Shown here: piece after piece, positions 55,785 through 64,000 of the stretch
How positions within the stretch are numbered: position 1 is the stretch's first letter
Layout of the letters: each line of letters starts with the position of its first letter
Origin: Parvibaculum sedimenti
GTDB taxonomy: Bacteria > Pseudomonadota > Alphaproteobacteria > Parvibaculales > Parvibaculaceae
Direction: 5' to 3'
Length of the DNA: 64,000 bases
NCBI RefSeq assembly: GCF_009184905.1
Contig: NZ_WESC01000008.1
Coordinates: 124,001 to 188,000, forward strand
Notes under the pieces: model-generated
The model's database searches: none
What the model saw: only the letters and a program-made list of their open reading frames with translations
Told to the model about the DNA's origin: nothing
Made by a program: the position numbers and the translations under genes

Positions 55785-57317
55785 TCAGTCCATCACTGCA
55801 TGGGCGGCCTGATCGGCGGGTATCGGGTTGGTCATCTTCGGCGAGCGCATCAGATAGACCGCCGGGACGGCAATCAGTGTCAGCCACATCATCAGCTTGA
55901 AGCCGTCGATATAGGCTATCGCGGCCGCCTGTTGCGTCACCAGCCCATTGATAACGCTCAGGCCCCGCGGGTTGTCGATCGAGAAGGAGGCGTATGCAGA
56001 GCCAGTGCGCAGCAGGGGATTGAACGGGCTTATATGCGCGGCAAGCTGCGCGTGGTTCACCTGCGTCATCGTTGCGATCATCGCCTGAGTGGTGGCGATG
56101 CCGATACTCGATCCGACATTTCGCATGAGGCTGAAGAAGCTTGTTCCTTCGGTGCGCAGATGTGCCTGGAGCGTCACGAAGGAAAGTGTCGTCAGAGGTG
56201 CGAAGATGAAGCCGAGGCCGAGGCCCTGCATGACGCCGGTGCGAACGATTTCCATCTCGCTCACATTGAGGTCGAATTTGCTCATTTCCCACAGCGTGAA
56301 AGACGTGAGAGCAAAGCCGCCAGAAATGATGAGACGCATGTCGACGGAGTTGATGATGCGTCCGGCGACCACCATGGCGACCATCGTTCCGAAGCCGCGC
56401 GGGGCGAGCACGATGCCGGTGGTGATGACCGGATAGCCCTTCAGATTCTGCAGGAAGGTCGGCATCAGCGCCATGGTGGCATAGAGCACGAAGCCGACCG
56501 CCATGGACAGGCAGAGGCCGAGCATCAGATTGCGATCCTTGAACAGATCGAGATCGATGAAGGGCTGCCGCGTCGTCGACGAATGTACGATGAACAGATA
56601 GAGGCCGAAGGCGGCGAGCAACGCCTCAAGGATGATCTCGCTTGATCCGAACCAGTCCTGAATGTTGCCGCGGTCGAGCATGAGCTGCGTGGCGCCGATG
56701 GCGAGGCTCAGAAACGCGAAACCGAGCCAGTCGAAGCGGCGCTCCTTTGAAAGCATCGACTCCCGCAATGCGCCGACAATTGCGCTGAAGGCCAGCACAC
56801 CGAATGGTACGTTGATGTAGAAGACCCAGCGCCAGCTGTAATTGTCGGTAAGCCAGCCGCCGAGCGCGGGCCCGACGATTGGCCCCACCATGACGCCAAC
56901 GCCCCACAGCGCCATCATCTTGCCGCGCTGCTCCATCGTGTACATGTCGAACATGATGGTCTGTGAGAGCGGCACGAAGGCGGCGCCGAACGCGCCCTGG
57001 GCGAGCCGGAAGAAGACAATCTGGTCGAGCGTTTGCGCCGCGCCGCAGAGCATCGACGTGACCGTGAAGCCGACGACTGAAATCGCCAGAAGCCGCTTGC
57101 GCCCGAAACGGATCGCAAGAAAGGCGGTGAGCGGCGTCGCGATGGCGGCGGCGATGATGTAGGAGGTCAGGACCCAGGCGATCTGATCCTGCGTCGCCGC
57201 CACGCTGCCCTGCATGTGGGGCAGGGCGACGTTCGCGATCGTTGAGTCGAGCGTCTGCATCACCGTTGCCAGCATGACGCCAGCGGTGACGATCGCTTTG
57301 CGCATCGTCTCGTTCAT
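55785..57317 (-). CDS. emrB: DHA2-family multidrug MFS transporter, EmrB-like
   Basis: 510 aa from the ATG at 57317, overlapping the emrA stop (ATGA). Fourteen hydrophobic segments expected. N-terminal VMQTLDSTIANVALPHMQGS (motif D1), AIRFGRKRLLAISVVGF (motif A) and GPALGGWLTDNYSWRWVFYI (motif C). Uses the proton gradient to move hydrophobic drugs; with EmrA and an outer-membrane factor it forms a tripartite pump. No TolC gene is next to it. Confidence 0.92.
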   Translation of the reverse strand: MNETMRKAIVTAGVMLATVMQTLDSTIANVALPHMQGSVAATQDQIAWVLTSYIIAAAIATPLTAFLAIRFGRKRLLAISVVGFTVTSMLCGAAQTLDQIVFFRLAQGAFGAAFVPLSQTIMFDMYTMEQRGKMMALWGVGVMVGPIVGPALGGWLTDNYSWRWVFYINVPFGVLAFSAIVGALRESMLSKERRFDWLGFAFLSLAIGATQLMLDRGNIQDWFGSSEIILEALLAAFGLYLFIVHSSTTRQPFIDLDLFKDRNLMLGLCLSMAVGFVLYATMALMPTFLQNLKGYPVITTGIVLAPRGFGTMVAMVVAGRIINSVDMRLIISGGFALTSFTLWEMSKFDLNVSEMEIVRTGVMQGLGLGFIFAPLTTLSFVTLQAHLRTEGTSFFSLMRNVGSSIGIATTQAMIATMTQVNHAQLAAHISPFNPLLRTGSAYASFSIDNPRGLSVINGLVTQQAAAIAYIDGFKLMMWLTLIAVPAVYLMRSPKMTNPIPADQAAHAVMD

Positions 57318-58399
57318 TGAGCGCCGCTCGCCGTCTGGAGAGACGTGACCGGCTCCGACTTCGTGTCGATCTCGATATTGGCGCTCATGCCGGCGCGGAT
57401 TTCGGGGTCGCCCTGCTTGCGGTCGATTGCGATGCGGACAGGAATGCGCTGCACGACCTTCACCCAGTTGCCTGTCGCGTTCTGCGCGGGGAGCACGGAG
57501 AACTCCGAACCCGTCGCCTGGGAGATGCTTGCGACATGGCCGGTCCATTTGTGGCCCGGATAGGTGTCAATGTCGATCTCGGCCAATTGTCCGGCATGGA
57601 CGTTGGTGAGGTCGGTTTCCTTGAAGTTGCCTTCGATCCAGACATTGTCATGCGAAACGACGCTCAGGACGGCCATGCCGGGCGCAATCTGATCGCCGAC
57701 CTGGGGCTGCTTGCCAGCCACGCCGTCGAAGGGCGCGCGCACGGTCGTGCGCTCGAGATTGAGCGCGGCGTTGTCGCGCATGGCCTTGGCGGCAAGATAG
57801 GAGGCATGCGACTCCACCGGCGCGTCGGGCGCGCCGTCGAGTTGCGCCGAAATCTGTTCGAGGCTCTGCCGCAGCACGCCGTCAAGCTGGCTCGCCGTAT
57901 CGAAATTATGACGCGCCGTGTCGAGGTTGGACTGGCTGGCGAAGTTGCTCTTGGCGAGCGCCGACTGGCGTTCGAACTGACGCTTGTAATAGGCGATGCT
58001 GGTCGCCGAAAGGCCGAGCTGCGCGACGGTCATTTCATACTTTGCGCGCAGCGCCTTCACATTCGCGGTCGCAGTGGCGAGCTGCGCCTCAGCCTGCGCG
58101 AGCGCGATCTGGTAAGGGGCGGGGTCGATCAGGAAGAGAGGATCGCCCGCCTTCACAAACTGGTTCTCCCTCACGAAGACCTTGACGATGCGCCCGCCGA
58201 CATCGGGGCTCACCGAGACCATATCCGCCTTCGCATAGGCGTTATCGGTGCTCACGTAGCGACCGCCCGTAAAATAGAAATAGGCGATGAGCGCGATGAG
58301 GAGGGCTGGGACGCCGATCAACAGGATCGGGCGAAGCTGCGCCCTGTCGCTCAAGAGGCGCCGCGCCGTGTTCGAAACGGGGGCGAATGTCACCGACAT
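57314..58399 (-). CDS. emrA: HlyD/EmrA-type periplasmic adaptor
   Basis: 361 aa. N-terminal membrane anchor (RPILLIGVPALLIALIAYFY), then the barrel-sandwich halves (GGRYVSTDNAYAKADMVSVS and GVAGKQPQVGDQIAPGMAVL) around a long coiled-coil hairpin (about 90-200) with QAEAQLATATANVKALRAKY. Links EmrB to an outer-membrane channel. Second gene of the marR-emrA-emrB operon. Confidence 0.92.
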   Translation of the reverse strand: MSVTFAPVSNTARRLLSDRAQLRPILLIGVPALLIALIAYFYFTGGRYVSTDNAYAKADMVSVSPDVGGRIVKVFVRENQFVKAGDPLFLIDPAPYQIALAQAEAQLATATANVKALRAKYEMTVAQLGLSATSIAYYKRQFERQSALAKSNFASQSNLDTARHNFDTASQLDGVLRQSLEQISAQLDGAPDAPVESHASYLAAKAMRDNAALNLERTTVRAPFDGVAGKQPQVGDQIAPGMAVLSVVSHDNVWIEGNFKETDLTNVHAGQLAEIDIDTYPGHKWTGHVASISQATGSEFSVLPAQNATGNWVKVVQRIPVRIAIDRKQGDPEIRAGMSANIEIDTKSEPVTSLQTASGAQ

Positions 58400-58457
58400 G
58401 CTTGATGCCTTTCAATTCCAAATGACGAATATCGAGTGGTGGAACGGCGGACGGCCG

Positions 58458-58946
58458 TCAGTCGCCGCGCGTCGGCGCAGAAGAGGCGCCGAGATGCACG
58501 GCGGCGACATTGCCGCGTAACCGTTCAAGAAGGCCCGCGAGCGCCTCTACTTCAGAGCGCGCGAAACCACCAAGAATGGTGCCGTAGATTTCTTCCGCAA
58601 TGTCCCAGATCTGATCAAGAAGCGGGGCCGCCTGCTCGGTGAGAAACAGACGTTGCGCGCGCCGATCCTTGGGGTCCGGGCGCCGCTCCACAAAACCCGC
58701 CGCGACGAGCTTGTCGATCAGGCGCGCGACCGTGATCGGCTGAACGTCCAGCAGATCGGCCAGGCTTACCTGGTTGAGCCCCTCATTGCGCGACAGGTGT
58801 ACGAGCGCGCGCCACTGCGCCTGTGTCAGGCCAAGGGGTGCGATGCGCTCGTTGAAGATGCGTCGGAGCATCCGCGACGAGTCGCCGATCAGGAAGCCGA
58901 TCCCGAGATCGAGGGAGCGGACGACGGGGAGAGGTTTATGCAGCAT
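58458..58946 (-). CDS. MarR family transcriptional regulator
   Basis: 162 aa winged-helix protein. Recognition region LTQAQWRALVHLSRNEGLNQ followed by LADLLDVQPITVARLIDKLV and the wing RRPDPKDRRAQRLFLTEQA. First gene of the emrAB operon, 58 nt upstream of emrA. Proteins of this kind repress efflux genes until a phenolic or drug ligand binds. A perfect palindrome just upstream is the probable operator. Confidence 0.92.
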   Translation of the reverse strand: MLHKPLPVVRSLDLGIGFLIGDSSRMLRRIFNERIAPLGLTQAQWRALVHLSRNEGLNQVSLADLLDVQPITVARLIDKLVAAGFVERRPDPKDRRAQRLFLTEQAAPLLDQIWDIAEEIYGTILGGFARSEVEALAGLLERLRGNVAAVHLGASSAPTRGD

Positions 58947-58987: not shown

Positions 58988-60012
58988 TACAAAGACAATA
59001 AAAGCCTCGGCAAGGGGGCTTTTGTGGGGGGGGAGGGGCAGATTGATTTTGGCTCGGCTACCAATTCAAAGGGGCGATACTTTAGATGCCCTCTAAACTG
59101 GGCCGCCCGGTTTCCCGCCTCCATCTGTTCCTTGCTTTGGAGAGGGCGCTTGCATCCGGCGGCGGTTCCCAGCTCTTGCCGATCTGCTGCAGGGCAGGAC
59201 GAATCCGTGGCATGAGCTGATCTGCCGCAAGCCGGCCTATATGCCGTCGAAGCCACTGAGATATCTCAGCGTCAAAGGCTCCTCACCGTGCTCAGCGGCA
59301 TCGACCGGCGCATGGATGGCAAGGTCCAACGGAGGAATCTCAAGAGTTGATTTGGGCCGCTCTGCGCGCATCATCGACGCGATGAGGTGCAAAAGATGGC
59401 ATTCAACATAGAGCGTTAAAATAGTTTGCTTACAGATTTATTTTGACCGATCTGTTCTACTTTCTCTTCGGGTTCAGGGAGGGTCTGATCGTCTGCGTAC
59501 ATCAAGTGTGTGAGAGCAATTCTCAGTCCTGTTTCATCTCAGGCTACCGACGCCCCTGCCGGCCCCATCATTCTTCGTGTCGGCCAGCGAGCATCTCGGC
59601 AAAAAGCCACGGATCGCAGCCGCACTTCTACGTCGGTACATTCATTACCGATGTGTAATGTCGTTGAACTTTTTTTTGACTTATAGGAAGCAGGTTGGCG
59701 GCACGTTTTTGCGGCGTATATGCGAACGATGCGCATTGTTTCTGTCTTCCGACTGCGTGGTCCATGACCTCCTGCGGAAATTGTCTCCGCTCGTTAATTC
59801 TCCAAGAAACTCCAAACAGGAATCTGTTTAAGTCGCAAAGAATGCAGCGCTGTAGCTGCTTATGAAATGGGCAATTTTTACAATACCGCCAAATGCGGAC
59901 AAACTTTAAAGAAGCCTCCGCACGCGGGAGGCTTTACCGAAAGTGCCGGAATTTTTCGCTCTCCGGAACGGCAGTCATTGTTTCTGCCATTTTCCGCGAA
60001 CAGGGGGATGTC
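58988..60012. other. About 1 kb without a credible gene, lower GC
   Basis: Between the divergent marR operon and the response regulator. Base composition is visibly more AT-rich than the rest of the window, with G-tracts near 59027 and T-tracts near 59669. Short open frames on both strands (for example 59443-59658) lack ribosome sites and family likeness. The only structured element I can support is the stem-loop at 59912-59934. It may be a decayed gene, acquired DNA or a regulatory region. Confidence 0.5.
59912..59934 (+). terminator. Terminator-like stem-loop upstream of response regulator
   Basis: AAGCCTCC (59912-59919) and GGAGGCTT (59927-59934) with a 7-nt loop, flanked upstream by an A/T-rich CTTTAAAG. 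It ends 78 nt before the regulator GTG. It could be an attenuator in the leader, or the end of a small RNA transcribed from the gene-less stretch. Confidence 0.45.
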
Positions 60013-60744
60013 GTGTACCGCGTTTTGATAGTCGATGACGATGTCGAACTCACAGAGTTGCTGCGCGAATATATAGAGCTTGAAGGCTTCACGGTGGAGT
60101 GCGTCCATGACGGCCTCGCCTGCTTGCGCAGCGATGTCGATGTCCATGATCTCATCGTGCTCGACGTCATGCTCCCGTCGATTTCCGGCTTCGAAGTTTT
60201 GAAGAGGTTGAGGCAGCGTTCGAAGGTTCCGGTGATCATGCTGACCGCGCGCGACGGTGATGTCGATCGTGTCGTTGGTCTTGAGTTGGGAGCAGACGAT
60301 TATGTGTCCAAGCCCGTCAATCCCAGGGAACTGATCGCCCGCATAAGAGCAGTCCTTCGCCGCACAAACCCGGCAGAGTCAGGGTCTTCAGGCGAATTGG
60401 AGGTCGGTGACATTCGCCTGGATGCCGCATCGCGCAGCGCATGGGCGATTGGTCGACGTCTTGAGCTCACCACCGCCGAATTTGATCTGCTTCAGCACCT
60501 CATGCGCAATGCGGGAATTATTGTGTCGCGCGACGAACTGTCCTCGGCGGTATTCGGGCGCAAGCACGCCGCGTCCGCCGACCGTAATGTCGACACGCTG
60601 GTGAGCAAGGTCCGACGAAAGATAGTGCCTGCGGGCGGCGTCGAGACATGCATAAAGACGATCCGCAATGTCGGATATCTCTATGCACTTCCGTCGGCAT
60701 CGACGCCGGACAGAGACCGCCGGCGGGCCGCTGTCGATGATTGA
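60013..60744 (+). CDS. OmpR-family response regulator (CpxR/PhoB-like)
   Basis: 243 aa, GTG start at 60013 with AGGGGGA upstream. Receiver domain with phosphoacceptor Asp51 in IVLDVMLPS and conserved Lys100 in VSKPVNPREL. C-terminal winged helix (from about 135) with RRLELTTAEFDLLQHLMRNA and TLVSKVRRKI. Activated by the histidine kinase at the end of the locus. Its stop lies inside the start of the barrel gene (8-nt overlap), so the four genes form one operon. Confidence 0.93.
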   Translation: MYRVLIVDDDVELTELLREYIELEGFTVECVHDGLACLRSDVDVHDLIVLDVMLPSISGFEVLKRLRQRSKVPVIMLTARDGDVDRVVGLELGADDYVSKPVNPRELIARIRAVLRRTNPAESGSSGELEVGDIRLDAASRSAWAIGRRLELTTAEFDLLQHLMRNAGIIVSRDELSSAVFGRKHAASADRNVDTLVSKVRRKIVPAGGVETCIKTIRNVGYLYALPSASTPDRDRRRAAVDD

Positions 60745-61792
60745 ACGGTTCGACAGTCTCTCGCGTTTGACGGTCGGTCTTGCCGCGGTCGGACTTGCGT
60801 CGTGTCTGACAAGCAACCCGGCATATGCAGGCGGAAAGTATCAGCTTGGCAGTGGCTATGACGTGGGGCCGTTCAATTTCTCGGGCTACATGAATTTTGT
60901 GGTGGCCTTGCCGGATCAAGGGCCGAAGTCCGCCACCCTCGAAGACCTCAGCCTCTTTGCAGCCGGCCATATCTCGAAACTCATAAATCCCTTTGTGGAG
61001 GCGGAGCTGACGCATCTTGTCGTCGCCGACACCGACCATTCGGGGGAGAACAACACCGGCGCGGAACTGGTTCTGGAGCGCTATTACAACGACTCCTATC
61101 TGTCCGACAGCGTCATACTGCGTTTGGGCAAGATGCTCGCGCCGGTTGGCGAGTGGAATTTGAATCATGCCGCGCCTCTTGTTCTGGCGACCTCGCGGCC
61201 TGCGGTGACCTTCCGGAATTTTGCCGCTTACATTCAGGGCGTTTCCCTTCTGTACAGCGATCCGGAGGGAGGCGCTCCCGACATGCAGGTCTATTGGCAA
61301 CCTGATTGGGAAGAGACGGAAAAGCCGCGCGGCGTGGTCTTCGAACAGCACAAGATGGCCGAGGGGATTCACGTCAGCGTTCCGATTCTCCAGTTCGACA
61401 AGGTAGGATTTTCGTTTCAGCGGGTTGTCGACTTTCACGGTGTAACTCAATCGCTCGTCGGCGGAGATTTTCGCTACACGCTTCAGAACGTCACCCTGCA
61501 AGGGGAAGCGACCTATTCAAGTCTTTCAGGCGGAGACATGACGCGCCTCAGAGATGATGAGTCTGGCGGATATCTCTCCGCCACCTATGCGTTCAATCCG
61601 AGATGGTCGGCCTATTCGTGGTATGAGGCATTCATGGACCGAACCCAGACATCGGCGGCGCAGGATGCGCTTGTGGGCGTCGCATATCATCCCGTCGATG
61701 TGATGGTCGTCAAACTCGAATATCTGCAGAATTTCGGTGGAACCCCTGTAAATCCGACGGGACTGTTTGCGTCCTGGTCGGTGCTATTCTGA
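60737..61792 (+). CDS. Outer-membrane beta-barrel protein, porin-like
   Basis: 351 aa from the ATG at 60737, overlapping the regulator stop. Signal peptide (LTVGLAAVGLASCLTSNPAY, cut near AYA-GG). The mature part alternates aromatic-rich strands (FNFSGYMNFVVALPDQG, YNDSYLSDSVILRLGKMLAP) and ends in Phe (LFASWSVLF), the usual barrel C-terminal signature. No known porin family is obvious. Embedded between regulator and a binding-protein-like gene, it may admit or report the signal molecule. Confidence 0.78.
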   Translation: MIERFDSLSRLTVGLAAVGLASCLTSNPAYAGGKYQLGSGYDVGPFNFSGYMNFVVALPDQGPKSATLEDLSLFAAGHISKLINPFVEAELTHLVVADTDHSGENNTGAELVLERYYNDSYLSDSVILRLGKMLAPVGEWNLNHAAPLVLATSRPAVTFRNFAAYIQGVSLLYSDPEGGAPDMQVYWQPDWEETEKPRGVVFEQHKMAEGIHVSVPILQFDKVGFSFQRVVDFHGVTQSLVGGDFRYTLQNVTLQGEATYSSLSGGDMTRLRDDESGGYLSATYAFNPRWSAYSWYEAFMDRTQTSAAQDALVGVAYHPVDVMVVKLEYLQNFGGTPVNPTGLFASWSVLF

Positions 61793-61795
61793 ACC

Positions 61796-62230
61796 GTGCC
61801 AATAGCAAGAGCCACATTCTTCCTCGTCGTCGTTATTAATCTGCTTACGGTGCAAGTGGCCGTGGCCGAAGAGCTTCTTATCATCGCCAATCCATCTGTC
61901 GGCCCGATTGCGCCGATGACACTGAGGCAGATTTCCGCGATTTATCTGTTGAGGATGATTTCCTGGCCGGATGGCAGCCACGTCATTCCCGTCAATCGGG
62001 AGCTCGGGAGCAGGGCGCGGGAAAGGTTCACCACCTTGGTGCTTCGTGAAGACAATGCCGCTCTGGTCGACTACTGGAACAAGATGCACTTCCAGGGAAA
62101 GTCGCCGCCTGTGATTCAGGAGTCTGAGCAGGCGATGCTCGCTTTCGTGCGCAGCGTGCCGGGCGCGGTCGGGTATGTATCTGCATCGACGCCTGTCGAT
62201 GGAGTAGAGGTCCTCGACCATGTTCCATAG
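61796..62230 (+). CDS. Small periplasmic PstS-like (phosphate-binding-like) protein
   Basis: 144 aa, GTG start. Signal peptide (FFLVVVINLLTVQVAVAEE) then a short binding-protein-like core: LLIIANPSVGPIAPMTLRQI, VIPVNRELGSRARERFTTLV and VRSVPGAVGYVSASTPVDGV. This resembles one lobe of PstS-type phosphate-binding proteins, but it is far shorter than a full PstS (about 330 aa). No ABC transporter genes accompany it. It starts 3 nt after the barrel stop and overlaps the kinase start by 11 nt, so it is likely a sensory partner. Confidence 0.7.
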   Translation: MPIARATFFLVVVINLLTVQVAVAEELLIIANPSVGPIAPMTLRQISAIYLLRMISWPDGSHVIPVNRELGSRARERFTTLVLREDNAALVDYWNKMHFQGKSPPVIQESEQAMLAFVRSVPGAVGYVSASTPVDGVEVLDHVP

Positions 62231-64000
62231 ACTTTGCAGGGAGTGGAGTGGCGGTCCGGGCGAGTTCTTACGTCGCTCGATTTCCCGCAAGATTCTGGCC
62301 GCTTTGGTAGCGATCTATGTCGTGACCTATGCGTCGACCGCATTCATCGTCTATTCCAGCGTCTCCACGTCCATTGTGGATTCAAATATGCAGGCGCTGC
62401 ACGAGTTGGCGCAGCGCAAATATGAGCGGGTAGAGAGCGTATTGGGCGCGGCGGCGACCGATCTCACCGCTTGGTCGCAGCTGGAGGTGATGAACGATCT
62501 GGTGTCTGGCGATCTCGACAAGCGCATCGATTCGACGCTTGACGGGTTGAAGCGGCTCTATGACTTGAGCGGCGATATCTACGCTTATGATATCAAGGGA
62601 AGGCTGATTTCCAGTACGCGCGCTGACAATCCGGCGGGCGAACTGCCATCCGTATGGAGAAGGCCGGAAAAGCATCTTGTTTTCATCGACAAGCATGTGG
62701 ATCCGGTTTCGCACGCCGATATCGTCGCTCTGGAAATTCCGGTGTTCGGGACTTTCGACAAGAATTATCAGATCGGATGGCTGGTGCTCACCTATCCATG
62801 GGCGGGTGTCGAGCGGTTGCTTTTCAGCGGCGACACGGCAACGGTTCTCAAGGCGACTGGTAGTCAGACATCGATACTGGCGGCCGACTGGGGCCCGTTT
62901 GCGGGTCGTGCCGATGCCGATGAACGTCAGGCATGGCTCAGCGGCAAAGATGGCGACATCGTTGCCGGGCGTTCCGCGCCGAGCAAAGGCATTCTCGGGC
63001 ACTGGCAGGTTTTCGCCCTGCAGAAGACGAATGTGACCGCGCATCTCCTTTGGCGTATCGGTGGGGAACTCATCATGCTGGGGGGAGCATTGGCCGTGCC
63101 GATCATCGGCGTCGGGCGATGGCTCTCAAACAGGCTGACGGCGCCGGTCGTGGAATTGACGCGGGTCGTCAGCGAAATCACAGAGACCGACAATCTCGAT
63201 GTCAGGGTTCCGGAGGCGAGCACGGACGAGCTGGGCACACTGGCGCGTTCCTTCAATCGAATGACTGAAAGCCTTCAGCGCGCGGCCGGCGAAAGAGAAC
63301 GATTTGTGGAAGATCTGGAGGCGCTGAACCAGACGCTTGAGACGAAGGTGGCGGCGCGCACGGAGGAACTTGAGGTCGCGGTCGCGACTCAAAAGCGCCT
63401 CATCGGTGATATCTCCCACGAAATCAAGTCGCCGCTGGCGCGCCTCGGAATGGCGCTCGGCCTGCTTCGGCGATCCGTCAACGACAGCCGTACGACGAAG
63501 CATTTCGATCGCATGGAGCGCGAGATCGACAATATCTCCGCATTGGCGAGCGAGCTTCTGACGCTCATGCGGCTTGATACAGCCGCTGACGCCGTCGAGT
63601 TCATGGTTGTCGATATTTGCGAGGTGATCACGCAGATCGCGTCCGATGCGACTTATGAAGCGCCGAACCGGAAAGACGACATGCATCTGTTTTTGCCGAC
63701 GGCGGCTGTCTTTGTAATGGGCGACGCCCAGCTGCTTGCCCGGGCGATCGAGAATGTCGTGAGGAACGCACTTTTTTACACAACCGAGAAGACACCGGTT
63801 GACGTCATCGTTCGCGCAGAGGGCGACGGGCAGGTGGTGATAGAGGTGCATGATTTCGGCCCGGGTGTTCCACCGGCCGCCCTTGCCCAATTGTTCGAGC
63901 CTTTCTATCGCGTCGACGATGCCAGAGCCCGCAATACGGGTGGCTCTGGCATCGGCCTGGCAATTTGTCAGCGCGTCATGATTCTTCATGGCGGAACTGT
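62220..64000 (+). CDS. Sensor histidine kinase (partial, C-terminus off window)
   Basis: 593 codons to the right edge without a stop. TM1 near residues 22-46 (LAALVAIYVVTYASTAFIVY), a periplasmic sensor of about 225 residues, TM2 near 276-300, HAMP, then the H box DISHEIKSPLARLG with phosphoacceptor His400. The ATPase part has N box ENVVRNALFY, G1 DFGPGVP and G2 GGSGIGLAI. Partner of the OmpR-type regulator in the same operon. The final few residues are missing. The sensor domain has no recognised fold from sequence alone. Confidence 0.92.
   Translation, partial: MFHRLCREWSGGPGEFLRRSISRKILAALVAIYVVTYASTAFIVYSSVSTSIVDSNMQALHELAQRKYERVESVLGAAATDLTAWSQLEVMNDLVSGDLDKRIDSTLDGLKRLYDLSGDIYAYDIKGRLISSTRADNPAGELPSVWRRPEKHLVFIDKHVDPVSHADIVALEIPVFGTFDKNYQIGWLVLTYPWAGVERLLFSGDTATVLKATGSQTSILAADWGPFAGRADADERQAWLSGKDGDIVAGRSAPSKGILGHWQVFALQKTNVTAHLLWRIGGELIMLGGALAVPIIGVGRWLSNRLTAPVVELTRVVSEITETDNLDVRVPEASTDELGTLARSFNRMTESLQRAAGERERFVEDLEALNQTLETKVAARTEELEVAVATQKRLIGDISHEIKSPLARLGMALGLLRRSVNDSRTTKHFDRMEREIDNISALASELLTLMRLDTAADAVEFMVVDICEVITQIASDATYEAPNRKDDMHLFLPTAAVFVMGDAQLLARAIENVVRNALFYTTEKTPVDVIVRAEGDGQVVIEVHDFGPGVPPAALAQLFEPFYRVDDARARNTGGSGIGLAICQRVMILHGGT

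What the first reader, a model, noticed from the sequence alone, without database searches (positions are those of the whole stretch)
60013..64000. Four-gene sensing locus: regulator, outer-membrane barrel, truncated PstS-like protein and kinase, all coupled
The response regulator and its kinase are separated by a porin-like barrel and a 144-aa phosphate-binding-like protein; the genes overlap or are 3 nt apart. No transporter genes are present. A signal could enter or be read at the outer membrane, be bound by the small periplasmic protein and be presented to the large periplasmic sensor of the kinase. I do not recall this exact four-part arrangement as a described system.
Basis: partly seen in the sequence, partly recalled or inferred. 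Interest (0 to 1): 0.62.

Follow-up and report, generated by a model that had tools for sequence, protein, structure and literature searches.

The report
Barrel-assisted sensor controlling a biosynthesis cluster
Four overlapping bacterial genes (a gene regulator, an outer-membrane barrel, half of a phosphate-binding-type protein and a membrane kinase) look like one sensing device, and a rare shared DNA site suggests that it controls itself and a neighbouring set of enzyme genes whose product is unknown.

Summary
In detail: regulator (60013-60744), barrel (60737-61792), 144-aa protein (61796-62230) and kinase (62220-64073, 73 bases past the window) overlap or lie 3 nt apart. The order recurs in six Rhodospirillales loci. 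Barrel, small protein and kinase sensor also recur in three distant loci with another kinase core and regulator, so the pair goes with the input side; two loci keep the sensor without it. The small protein is PstS lobe 2 only; phosphate sensing is unsupported. The sensor is predicted double-Cache. The pair is widespread: 55 of 57 sampled small genes have a barrel-like neighbour, against 38 of 226 control ORFs.

A repeat, TCTCCANNNAACTCSA, has two exact copies in this genome, before the regulator and before that cluster. One paper already proposed that a two-component system controls a related cluster in Pseudoalteromonas (PMC6262041, passages). I propose a binding-protein-assisted two-component system dedicated to this cluster; ligand and product are unknown.

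The parts
59799..59814 (+). Direct-repeat site TCTCCAAGAAACTCCA (proposed binding site of the regulator) before the operon; an AT-rich TTAAGT follows 13 nt after it
   Evidence: exact copies at the matching place in L096, L097, L098, L099, L102 (none found in L100); one of two exact copies in the whole genome, the other (G000:C40:188786, window coordinate 64786) before the T_hemolysin gene.
60013..60744 (+). OmpR/PhoB-type response regulator, 243 aa, GTG start
   Evidence: Pfam Response_reg 3.2e-27 and Trans_reg_C 2.5e-19.
60737..61792 (+). Outer-membrane beta-barrel, porin-like, 351 aa, signal-peptide-like start (by eye), C-terminal Phe
   Evidence: Some orthologues match BBP2, Porin_4, Porin_O_P; profile-profile match to barrels of c-di-GMP and kinase loci, probability 74, E 2.9e-5; 33-56% identity to 9 barrels at the same place. 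No solved relative by sequence.
61796..62230 (+). One-lobe PstS-like protein, 144 aa, GTG start, signal-peptide-like start (by eye), no cysteine
   Evidence: PstS middle part by profile and by model (residues 25-144 on 108-220 of 4exl, Z 8.4, rmsd 3.0, 100 aligned; model pLDDT only 67).
62220..64000 (+). Sensor histidine kinase, 617 aa, continues 73 bases past the window (L003:3221-5074): membrane helix, double-Cache sensor, membrane helix, HAMP, HisKA, HATPase_c
   Evidence: Pfam; sensor model pLDDT 75.9 matching the KinD sensor 4jgo at E 5.5e-10.

Best explanation
A substrate-binding-protein-assisted two-component system devoted to one neighbouring enzyme cluster. A molecule enters or is held at the outer-membrane barrel; the one-lobe PstS-like protein helps present it, or the state of the barrel, to the double-Cache domain of the kinase; the kinase phosphorylates the OmpR-type regulator; the regulator binds the CTCCA direct repeats and switches on its own operon and the T_hemolysin / acyl ligase-iron oxidase / SDR / TPR genes. 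Shown by sequence: gene order and coupling, co-inheritance of barrel, small protein and sensor, the domain classes, and the shared repeat at both promoters. Predicted: the folds. Inferred: that the repeat is bound by this regulator, that control is activating, that the small protein touches barrel and kinase. Unknown: ligand and product.
For: Order RR-barrel-small protein-kinase in 6 further loci (L096, L097, L098, L099 Tistlia consotensis, L100 Nitrospirillum iridis, L102). Of 11 loci that carry this sensor, 9 have barrel and small protein directly before it. Output exchanged, input kept: in L105-L107 sensor 33-38% and HAMP/coil 45-62% identical, kinase core only 22-25% and another regulator type. 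Converse: L049 has the same regulator (56%) and HAMP/kinase core (about 45%), another sensor, and no barrel or small protein beside it. Repeat: 2 exact copies in 3.70 Mb, before the regulator and before T_hemolysin; at equivalent places in orthologous loci; the exact hits in G784, G785, G786, G787 and G081 all lie in this locus type; TCTCCACACAACTCSA has 4 hits in 385 genomes, all at this locus type, reversed control 0. No copy with up to 2 mismatches before the regulators of L101 and L104. In 57 other regions (588,552 bases): 0 exact, 1 with one mismatch.
Against: L101 and L104 keep the sensor (39-40% identity) without barrel or small protein, and their genomes give no match to the small-protein profile, so the kinase can apparently work without them. 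The pair often stands without a sensor: 23 of 57 sampled small genes have no ORF of 350 aa or more just downstream, and several downstream ORFs are metabolic genes. The double-Cache domain could bind a ligand itself. A single lobe has no cleft between lobes. No binding, interaction or expression data. The repeat was found by eye in these same loci before it was scanned: of the loci with exact hits only L049 (G081) had not been used to find it. L100 has no copy before its regulator. Nine one-mismatch copies elsewhere in the genome and one exact copy in G780 were not studied.
Confidence: 0.5

Rival explanations
1. Barrel and small protein are output, not input: a scavenging porin and binding protein whose genes are merely controlled by the two-component system in whose operon they sit.
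For: They share the operon and hence the upstream repeat. Small-protein/porin pairs stand without a sensor in many loci.
Against: No ABC transporter found in the locus. The pair follows the sensor domain, not the regulator or kinase core. The same kind of pair sits beside GGDEF, EAL and chemoreceptor genes that do not act on transcription directly.
Confidence: 0.25
2. The small protein is a mechanical adaptor: it bridges the outer-membrane barrel and the inner-membrane sensor and reports envelope state or barrel occupancy, without binding a small ligand.
For: One lobe only, no inter-lobe cleft; the PstS GSGT loop is not kept; strongly conserved YWN.M.F.G..PP and VPG..GY segments could be contact surface.
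Against: Arg68 and Ser72 of the PstS-type anion loop are kept in all 10 orthologues; the sensor has a fold that binds ligands in other receptors.
Confidence: 0.2
3. The small gene is a decaying paralogue fragment trapped in a regulatory operon.
For: It is below the Pfam and NCBIfam cut-offs of its parent families.
Against: 34 invariant positions in 10 orthologues, start and stop codons coupled to its neighbours, and a family profile that hits 75 of 398 genomes at E<=1e-5, some of the weaker hits being full-length PstS-type.
Confidence: 0.02

Closest known systems
Pseudoalteromonas carrageenovora two-component / acyl-CoA synthetase / thermostable hemolysin cluster
   Same: A paper lists a two-component pair (named QseB/QseC), an iron transporter gene, two acyl-CoA synthetase genes and a thermostable hemolysin gene in one cluster, conserved in 24 Pseudoalteromonas genomes, and suggests that the pair, when activated by iron, controls the hemolysin (PMC6262041, passages read). 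A related gene set, found here in 36 fetched loci, lies downstream of our locus.
   Different: The passages mention no barrel, no small binding protein and no DNA site; in the fetched T_hemolysin loci outside the Alphaproteobacteria the neighbouring pair has only generic similarity to ours (regulators mostly 32-39% identical).
AioX-AioS-AioR, arsenite three-component system
   Same: Periplasmic binding protein gene beside its kinase and regulator, next to the enzyme genes controlled (PMC7533571, passages read).
   Different: AioX is another binding-protein family (recalled) and AioR belongs to the sigma54 type; the passages seen mention no outer-membrane barrel.
NspS-MbaA polyamine system
   Same: Binding protein that drives a membrane c-di-GMP enzyme (search listing with starts of abstracts); resembles the GGDEF/EAL versions of the pair seen here.
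   Different: NspS is a full polyamine-type binding protein and has no barrel partner (both recalled).
BctC-BctE and other SBP-activated sensor kinases
   Same: Ligand-loaded binding protein activates the periplasmic domain of a kinase; many such pairs are adjacent (PMC9602780, passages; PMC11113362, start of abstract and passages).
   Different: BctC belongs to a transporter; two-lobed, without a barrel (recalled).
PhoB-PhoR-Pst phosphate system
   Same: OmpR/PhoB-type regulator and PstS-like fold.
   Different: One lobe only, no Pst transporter, double-Cache kinase; the repeat differs from the Pho box (recalled).

Membership tests
SBP-activated sensor kinase (three-component system) | Binding-protein gene coupled to a kinase with a periplasmic sensor domain | tested here: met
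   Overlapping genes; predicted double-Cache sensor; 9 of 11 sensor-bearing loci.
SBP-activated sensor kinase (three-component system) | The binding protein binds a ligand and the kinase sensor domain | not testable with these tools
   No complex prediction or assay available; an indirect contrast of sensor residues was weak.
SBP-activated sensor kinase (three-component system) | Two-lobed solute-binding protein | tested here: not met
   Only the PstS second lobe is present.
PstS phosphate-binding protein (TIGR02136) | Score above the curated cut-off over two lobes | tested here: not met
   22.4 against 206.6 bits, profile positions 115-221 of 295.
OmpR/PhoB response regulators | Receiver plus winged-helix DNA-binding domain | tested here: met
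   95.3 and 69.6 bits, above both cut-offs.
Porin_O_P (PF07396) | Score above the gathering cut-off | tested here: not met
   13.5 against 20.9 bits for the window protein.
T_hemolysin (PF12261), first enzyme-like gene of the neighbouring cluster | Score above the gathering cut-off | tested here: met
   185.3 against 27 bits.
double-Cache sensor domain | dCache fold between two membrane helices | tested here: met
   Model pLDDT 75.9; KinD sensor 4jgo E 5.5e-10, TM-score 0.77 by target length. The Pfam dCache_1 score is below cut-off (21.9 against 45 bits).

The most novel reading that the evidence does not exclude
A closed chemical-signalling circuit: the T_hemolysin / acyl ligase-iron oxidase / SDR cluster makes a small acyl-derived molecule that leaves or re-enters through the dedicated barrel, is handed by the one-lobe protein to the double-Cache kinase, and induces its own synthesis through the dedicated CTCCA repeats. 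Barrel plus one-lobe protein would then be an unrecognised outer-membrane-to-sensor input module that Pseudomonadota plug into kinases, c-di-GMP enzymes and chemoreceptors.
Probability: 0.12. Interest if true: 0.88.

Novelty: new variant of a known kind. Interest (0 to 1): 0.6.

Why it matters
Binding-protein-assisted sensors are known, but here an outer-membrane barrel and a half binding protein are inherited with the sensor domain while the output is exchanged. That suggests a reusable input module across the envelope, seen next to kinases, c-di-GMP enzymes and chemoreceptors. The narrow DNA-site distribution gives a direct handle on a widespread enzyme cluster whose product I could not find named: find what activates the kinase and the cluster should respond.

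Tried and rejected
Fusion of the small protein to sensors: apparent 575-626 aa ORFs in G384 (L142, L143) are over-extended reading frames, not fusions. Sensor contrast: in the two kinases without the pair, 5 of 33 otherwise invariant periplasmic residues are changed in both, four of them at 84-101; but among control pairs of barrel-associated kinases one shows 4 of 42 and another 3 of 46, so this is only a hint. Tree: the two kinases without the pair form one clade, a single change; direction not settled. T_hemolysin against solved structures: no relative (best E 1). Barrel against solved structures: no barrel relative worth the name (best E 0.075). Phosphate sensing: rejected as a default. 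Promoter and terminator scan: nothing useful.

Literature: ten searches. One search read my term as 'themolysin' and told nothing; one search looked for analogues. One search held 881 papers of which 15 were listed; two searches listed 15 and 7, seen as titles and abstract starts only. I saw no description of the barrel/one-lobe/sensor arrangement. For that reason I lowered the novel-case probability from 0.15 to 0.12 and the interest from 0.62 to 0.6. The library is open-access only.

The background count (9 sites with up to one mismatch) included L148-L150; without them it is 1.
Full report
What is there. On the + strand, an OmpR-type regulator (60013-60744), a barrel (60737-61792), a 144-aa protein (61796-62230) and a histidine kinase (from 62220) are packed with overlaps of 8 and 11 nt and one 3-nt gap. 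The window is G000:C40:124001-188000. The kinase ends 73 bases beyond it, at L003:5074. Next on the same strand come DUF2141, T_hemolysin, a fusion of an AMP-forming ligase and a heme-oxygenase-like iron enzyme, an SDR, a TPR protein and a methyltransferase-like ORF (the last named by eye). The genome belongs to the Alphaproteobacteria (inferred: one search lists G681 as same class, and its contig has the length of the Rhodospirillales record behind L098). GC is 57.8% in the four genes against 62.9% in the window. Among 98 genomes of the relatives sample four give a match to the small protein, and only the own one is close, which fits sporadic inheritance.

Conservation of the order. A scan of genome contigs with the kinase gave 17 loci. 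Eleven carry the sensor domain: L096-L102 and L104-L107 (L103 is cut and shows only the core; L108-L112 match only the core). Regulator-barrel-small protein-kinase stands in six: L096, L097, L098, L099, L100, L102. In L105, L106 and L107 barrel, small protein and kinase are present, and receiver-type regulators of another kind follow. L101 and L104 have regulator and kinase with nothing between, and their genomes, as held, give no match to the small-protein profile. Cluster genes follow the kinase in L097, L098 (T_hemolysin and SDR not detected), L099, L100 and L102 (about 4 kb away); the L096 contig ends before them.

Input and output come apart. Against the window kinase, L105-L107 are 33-38% identical in the periplasmic sensor and 45-62% in HAMP and coil, but 22-25% in the catalytic core, which is of another class. 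The reverse occurs in L049: regulator 56% and the part from HAMP onward about 45% identical by tblastn, another short sensor, no barrel and no small protein found beside it. So barrel and small protein go with the sensor domain. The two kinases without the pair are evidence against strict dependence. Five of 33 otherwise invariant periplasmic residues are changed in both of them, four within 84-101, but a control pair shows 4 of 42, so I do not lean on this.

What the small protein is. A profile of ten orthologues matches PstS-type structures over their middle part (4exl 1.7e-7, 1twy 2e-4). A rough model (pLDDT 67) matches 4exl by Foldseek at E 9.8e-4 and aligns residues 25-144 with 108-220 of 4exl at Z 8.4, rmsd 3.0, 100 residues. 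That is the second lobe alone. The PstS loop printed as REDGSGTRDAF corresponds to REVASEVREKF-like sequence here: Arg and Ser are kept, GSGT is not. It fails the PstS family cut-off. Thirty-four positions are invariant in ten orthologues.

How general the pair is. A profile from ten diverse small proteins hits 75 of 398 Pseudomonadota genomes at E<=1e-5, some weaker hits being full-length PstS-type proteins, and 8 of 385 alphaproteobacterial genomes at E<=1e-3. I fetched 60 regions, not all hits. After the exclusions listed under Tried and rejected, 57 small genes in 55 phylum-sample loci were examined, mostly one strong hit per genome (G384 gave five genes, G100, G104 and G217 two each). Fifty-five have a same-strand neighbour of 300-620 aa ending in an aromatic or His residue, 39 upstream and 16 downstream. 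The same test on other ORFs of those loci gives 38 of 226, and 4 of 43 for ORFs of 110-220 aa. Of 56 such barrels (the window's included), 12 match Porin_4, 9 OMP_b-brl and 6 Porin_O_P at E<=0.01. Thirty-four of the 57 have a following ORF of at least 350 aa; with the window kinase added (35 proteins) 14 match GGDEF, 10 EAL, 10 dCache_3, 6 HisKA and 4 MCPsignal at E<=1e-5, while several are unrelated metabolic genes. In nine plasmid regions opened, seven annotated ones show the small gene directly beside a porin-sized gene, labelled porin or hypothetical protein (L079, L080, L081, L083, L084, L085, L086); L087 shows none, and L082 is not annotated.

The regulon. Comparing upstream regions by eye showed a direct repeat, CTCCA repeated at 10 bp. 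TCTCCANNNAACTCSA covers the two exact sites of this genome. In its 3.70 Mb it has two exact copies: window 59799, before the regulator, and G000:C40:188786, before T_hemolysin; nine further one-mismatch copies lie elsewhere and were not studied, and the reversed control has none. A weaker copy (2 mismatches) precedes DUF2141. At orthologous loci, exact sites precede the regulator in L096, L097, L098, L099 and L102 (none found in L100), and a site with at most 2 mismatches lies between the kinase and the cluster genes (or contig end) in all six. L049 has three, one exact and two with one mismatch. In ten other genomes, exact hits are G784 2, G785 1, G786 3, G787 2, G081 1, all in this locus type; G780 has one on a 3-kb contig that I did not study; G779 and G781-G783 have none; controls zero. 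The form TCTCCACACAACTCSA has four hits in 385 alphaproteobacterial genomes: this genome, G681 (two; the L098 contig) and G081, controls zero. Of these only G081 (L049) had not been used to find the repeat, so the independent part is that site plus the absence everywhere else. In 39 fetched regions (756,876 bases, 36 of them around T_hemolysin genes or their flank) copies with at most one mismatch appear only in L049 (three) and once in L060, inside a coding region, so the site goes with this regulator rather than with the cluster. In 57 other regions (588,552 bases) there are none exact and one with one mismatch. In the regulator promoters of the window, L096, L097 and L098 an AT-rich hexamer follows at a constant 13 nt, not so in L099 and L102; an activator site near -35 is my inference.

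The cluster. T_hemolysin genes occur in 78 of 398 Pseudomonadota genomes. In 36 loci chosen from these, the core T_hemolysin, ligase/oxidase, SDR, TPR is complete in 33, and an OmpR-type regulator lies within 500 bp of the cluster in 15. That a two-component pair controls such a cluster, perhaps in answer to iron, has been suggested for Pseudoalteromonas (PMC6262041, passages); the same passages report a Vibrio thermostable hemolysin shown to be toxic to zebrafish, so the cluster may serve virulence in some marine bacteria, which competes with my signalling reading. The oxidase domain resembles heme-oxygenase-fold proteins of known structure (3dde 1.5e-22; CT610 7.7e-6). T_hemolysin has no solved relative by sequence. 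I recall that Pfam places it with GNAT-type acyltransferases; no call shows this. In the genus, 7 of 27 genomes have a T_hemolysin gene; the six others match the family less strongly.

How it most likely works. Binding-protein-assisted activation of kinases, c-di-GMP enzymes and chemoreceptors is established (PMC9602780, passages; also PMC11113362 and PMC7533571, passages). Here the same logic would use a barrel and a half binding protein. I give about 0.85 to the claim that the regulator controls the cluster, and about 0.45 to the claim that barrel and small protein act on the input side by direct contact.

Noticed in passing
L142-L201 and plasmid loci L079-L087: Barrel plus one-lobe PstS-like gene is a common pair in Pseudomonadota, up to six profile matches in one genome (G217), beside GGDEF, EAL, MCP or hybrid-kinase genes or without them.
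   Followed up: partly
L039-L073, L077: T_hemolysin / AMP ligase / heme-oxygenase-like enzyme / SDR / TPR form a strongly conserved gene set (complete in 33 of 36 loci) of unknown product, in 15 of 36 with an OmpR-type regulator within 500 bp.
   Followed up: partly
L080 and L086 (Alteromonas plasmids): The small-protein/barrel pair sits next to a type IV CRISPR (csf) operon on both plasmids.
   Followed up: no
window 55785-58946, minus strand: MFS-type efflux, HlyD/EmrA-like and MarR-like genes (by eye from the translations), divergent to the sensing locus.
   Followed up: no
L153, L170, L173 and similar: Reverse order, small protein then barrel then a large ORF, in some lineages.
   Followed up: no
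L098:10815-14522: T_hemolysin and SDR were not detected and the ligase match is short, which may mean decay or an assembly error, although four repeat sites with at most one mismatch remain.
   Followed up: no
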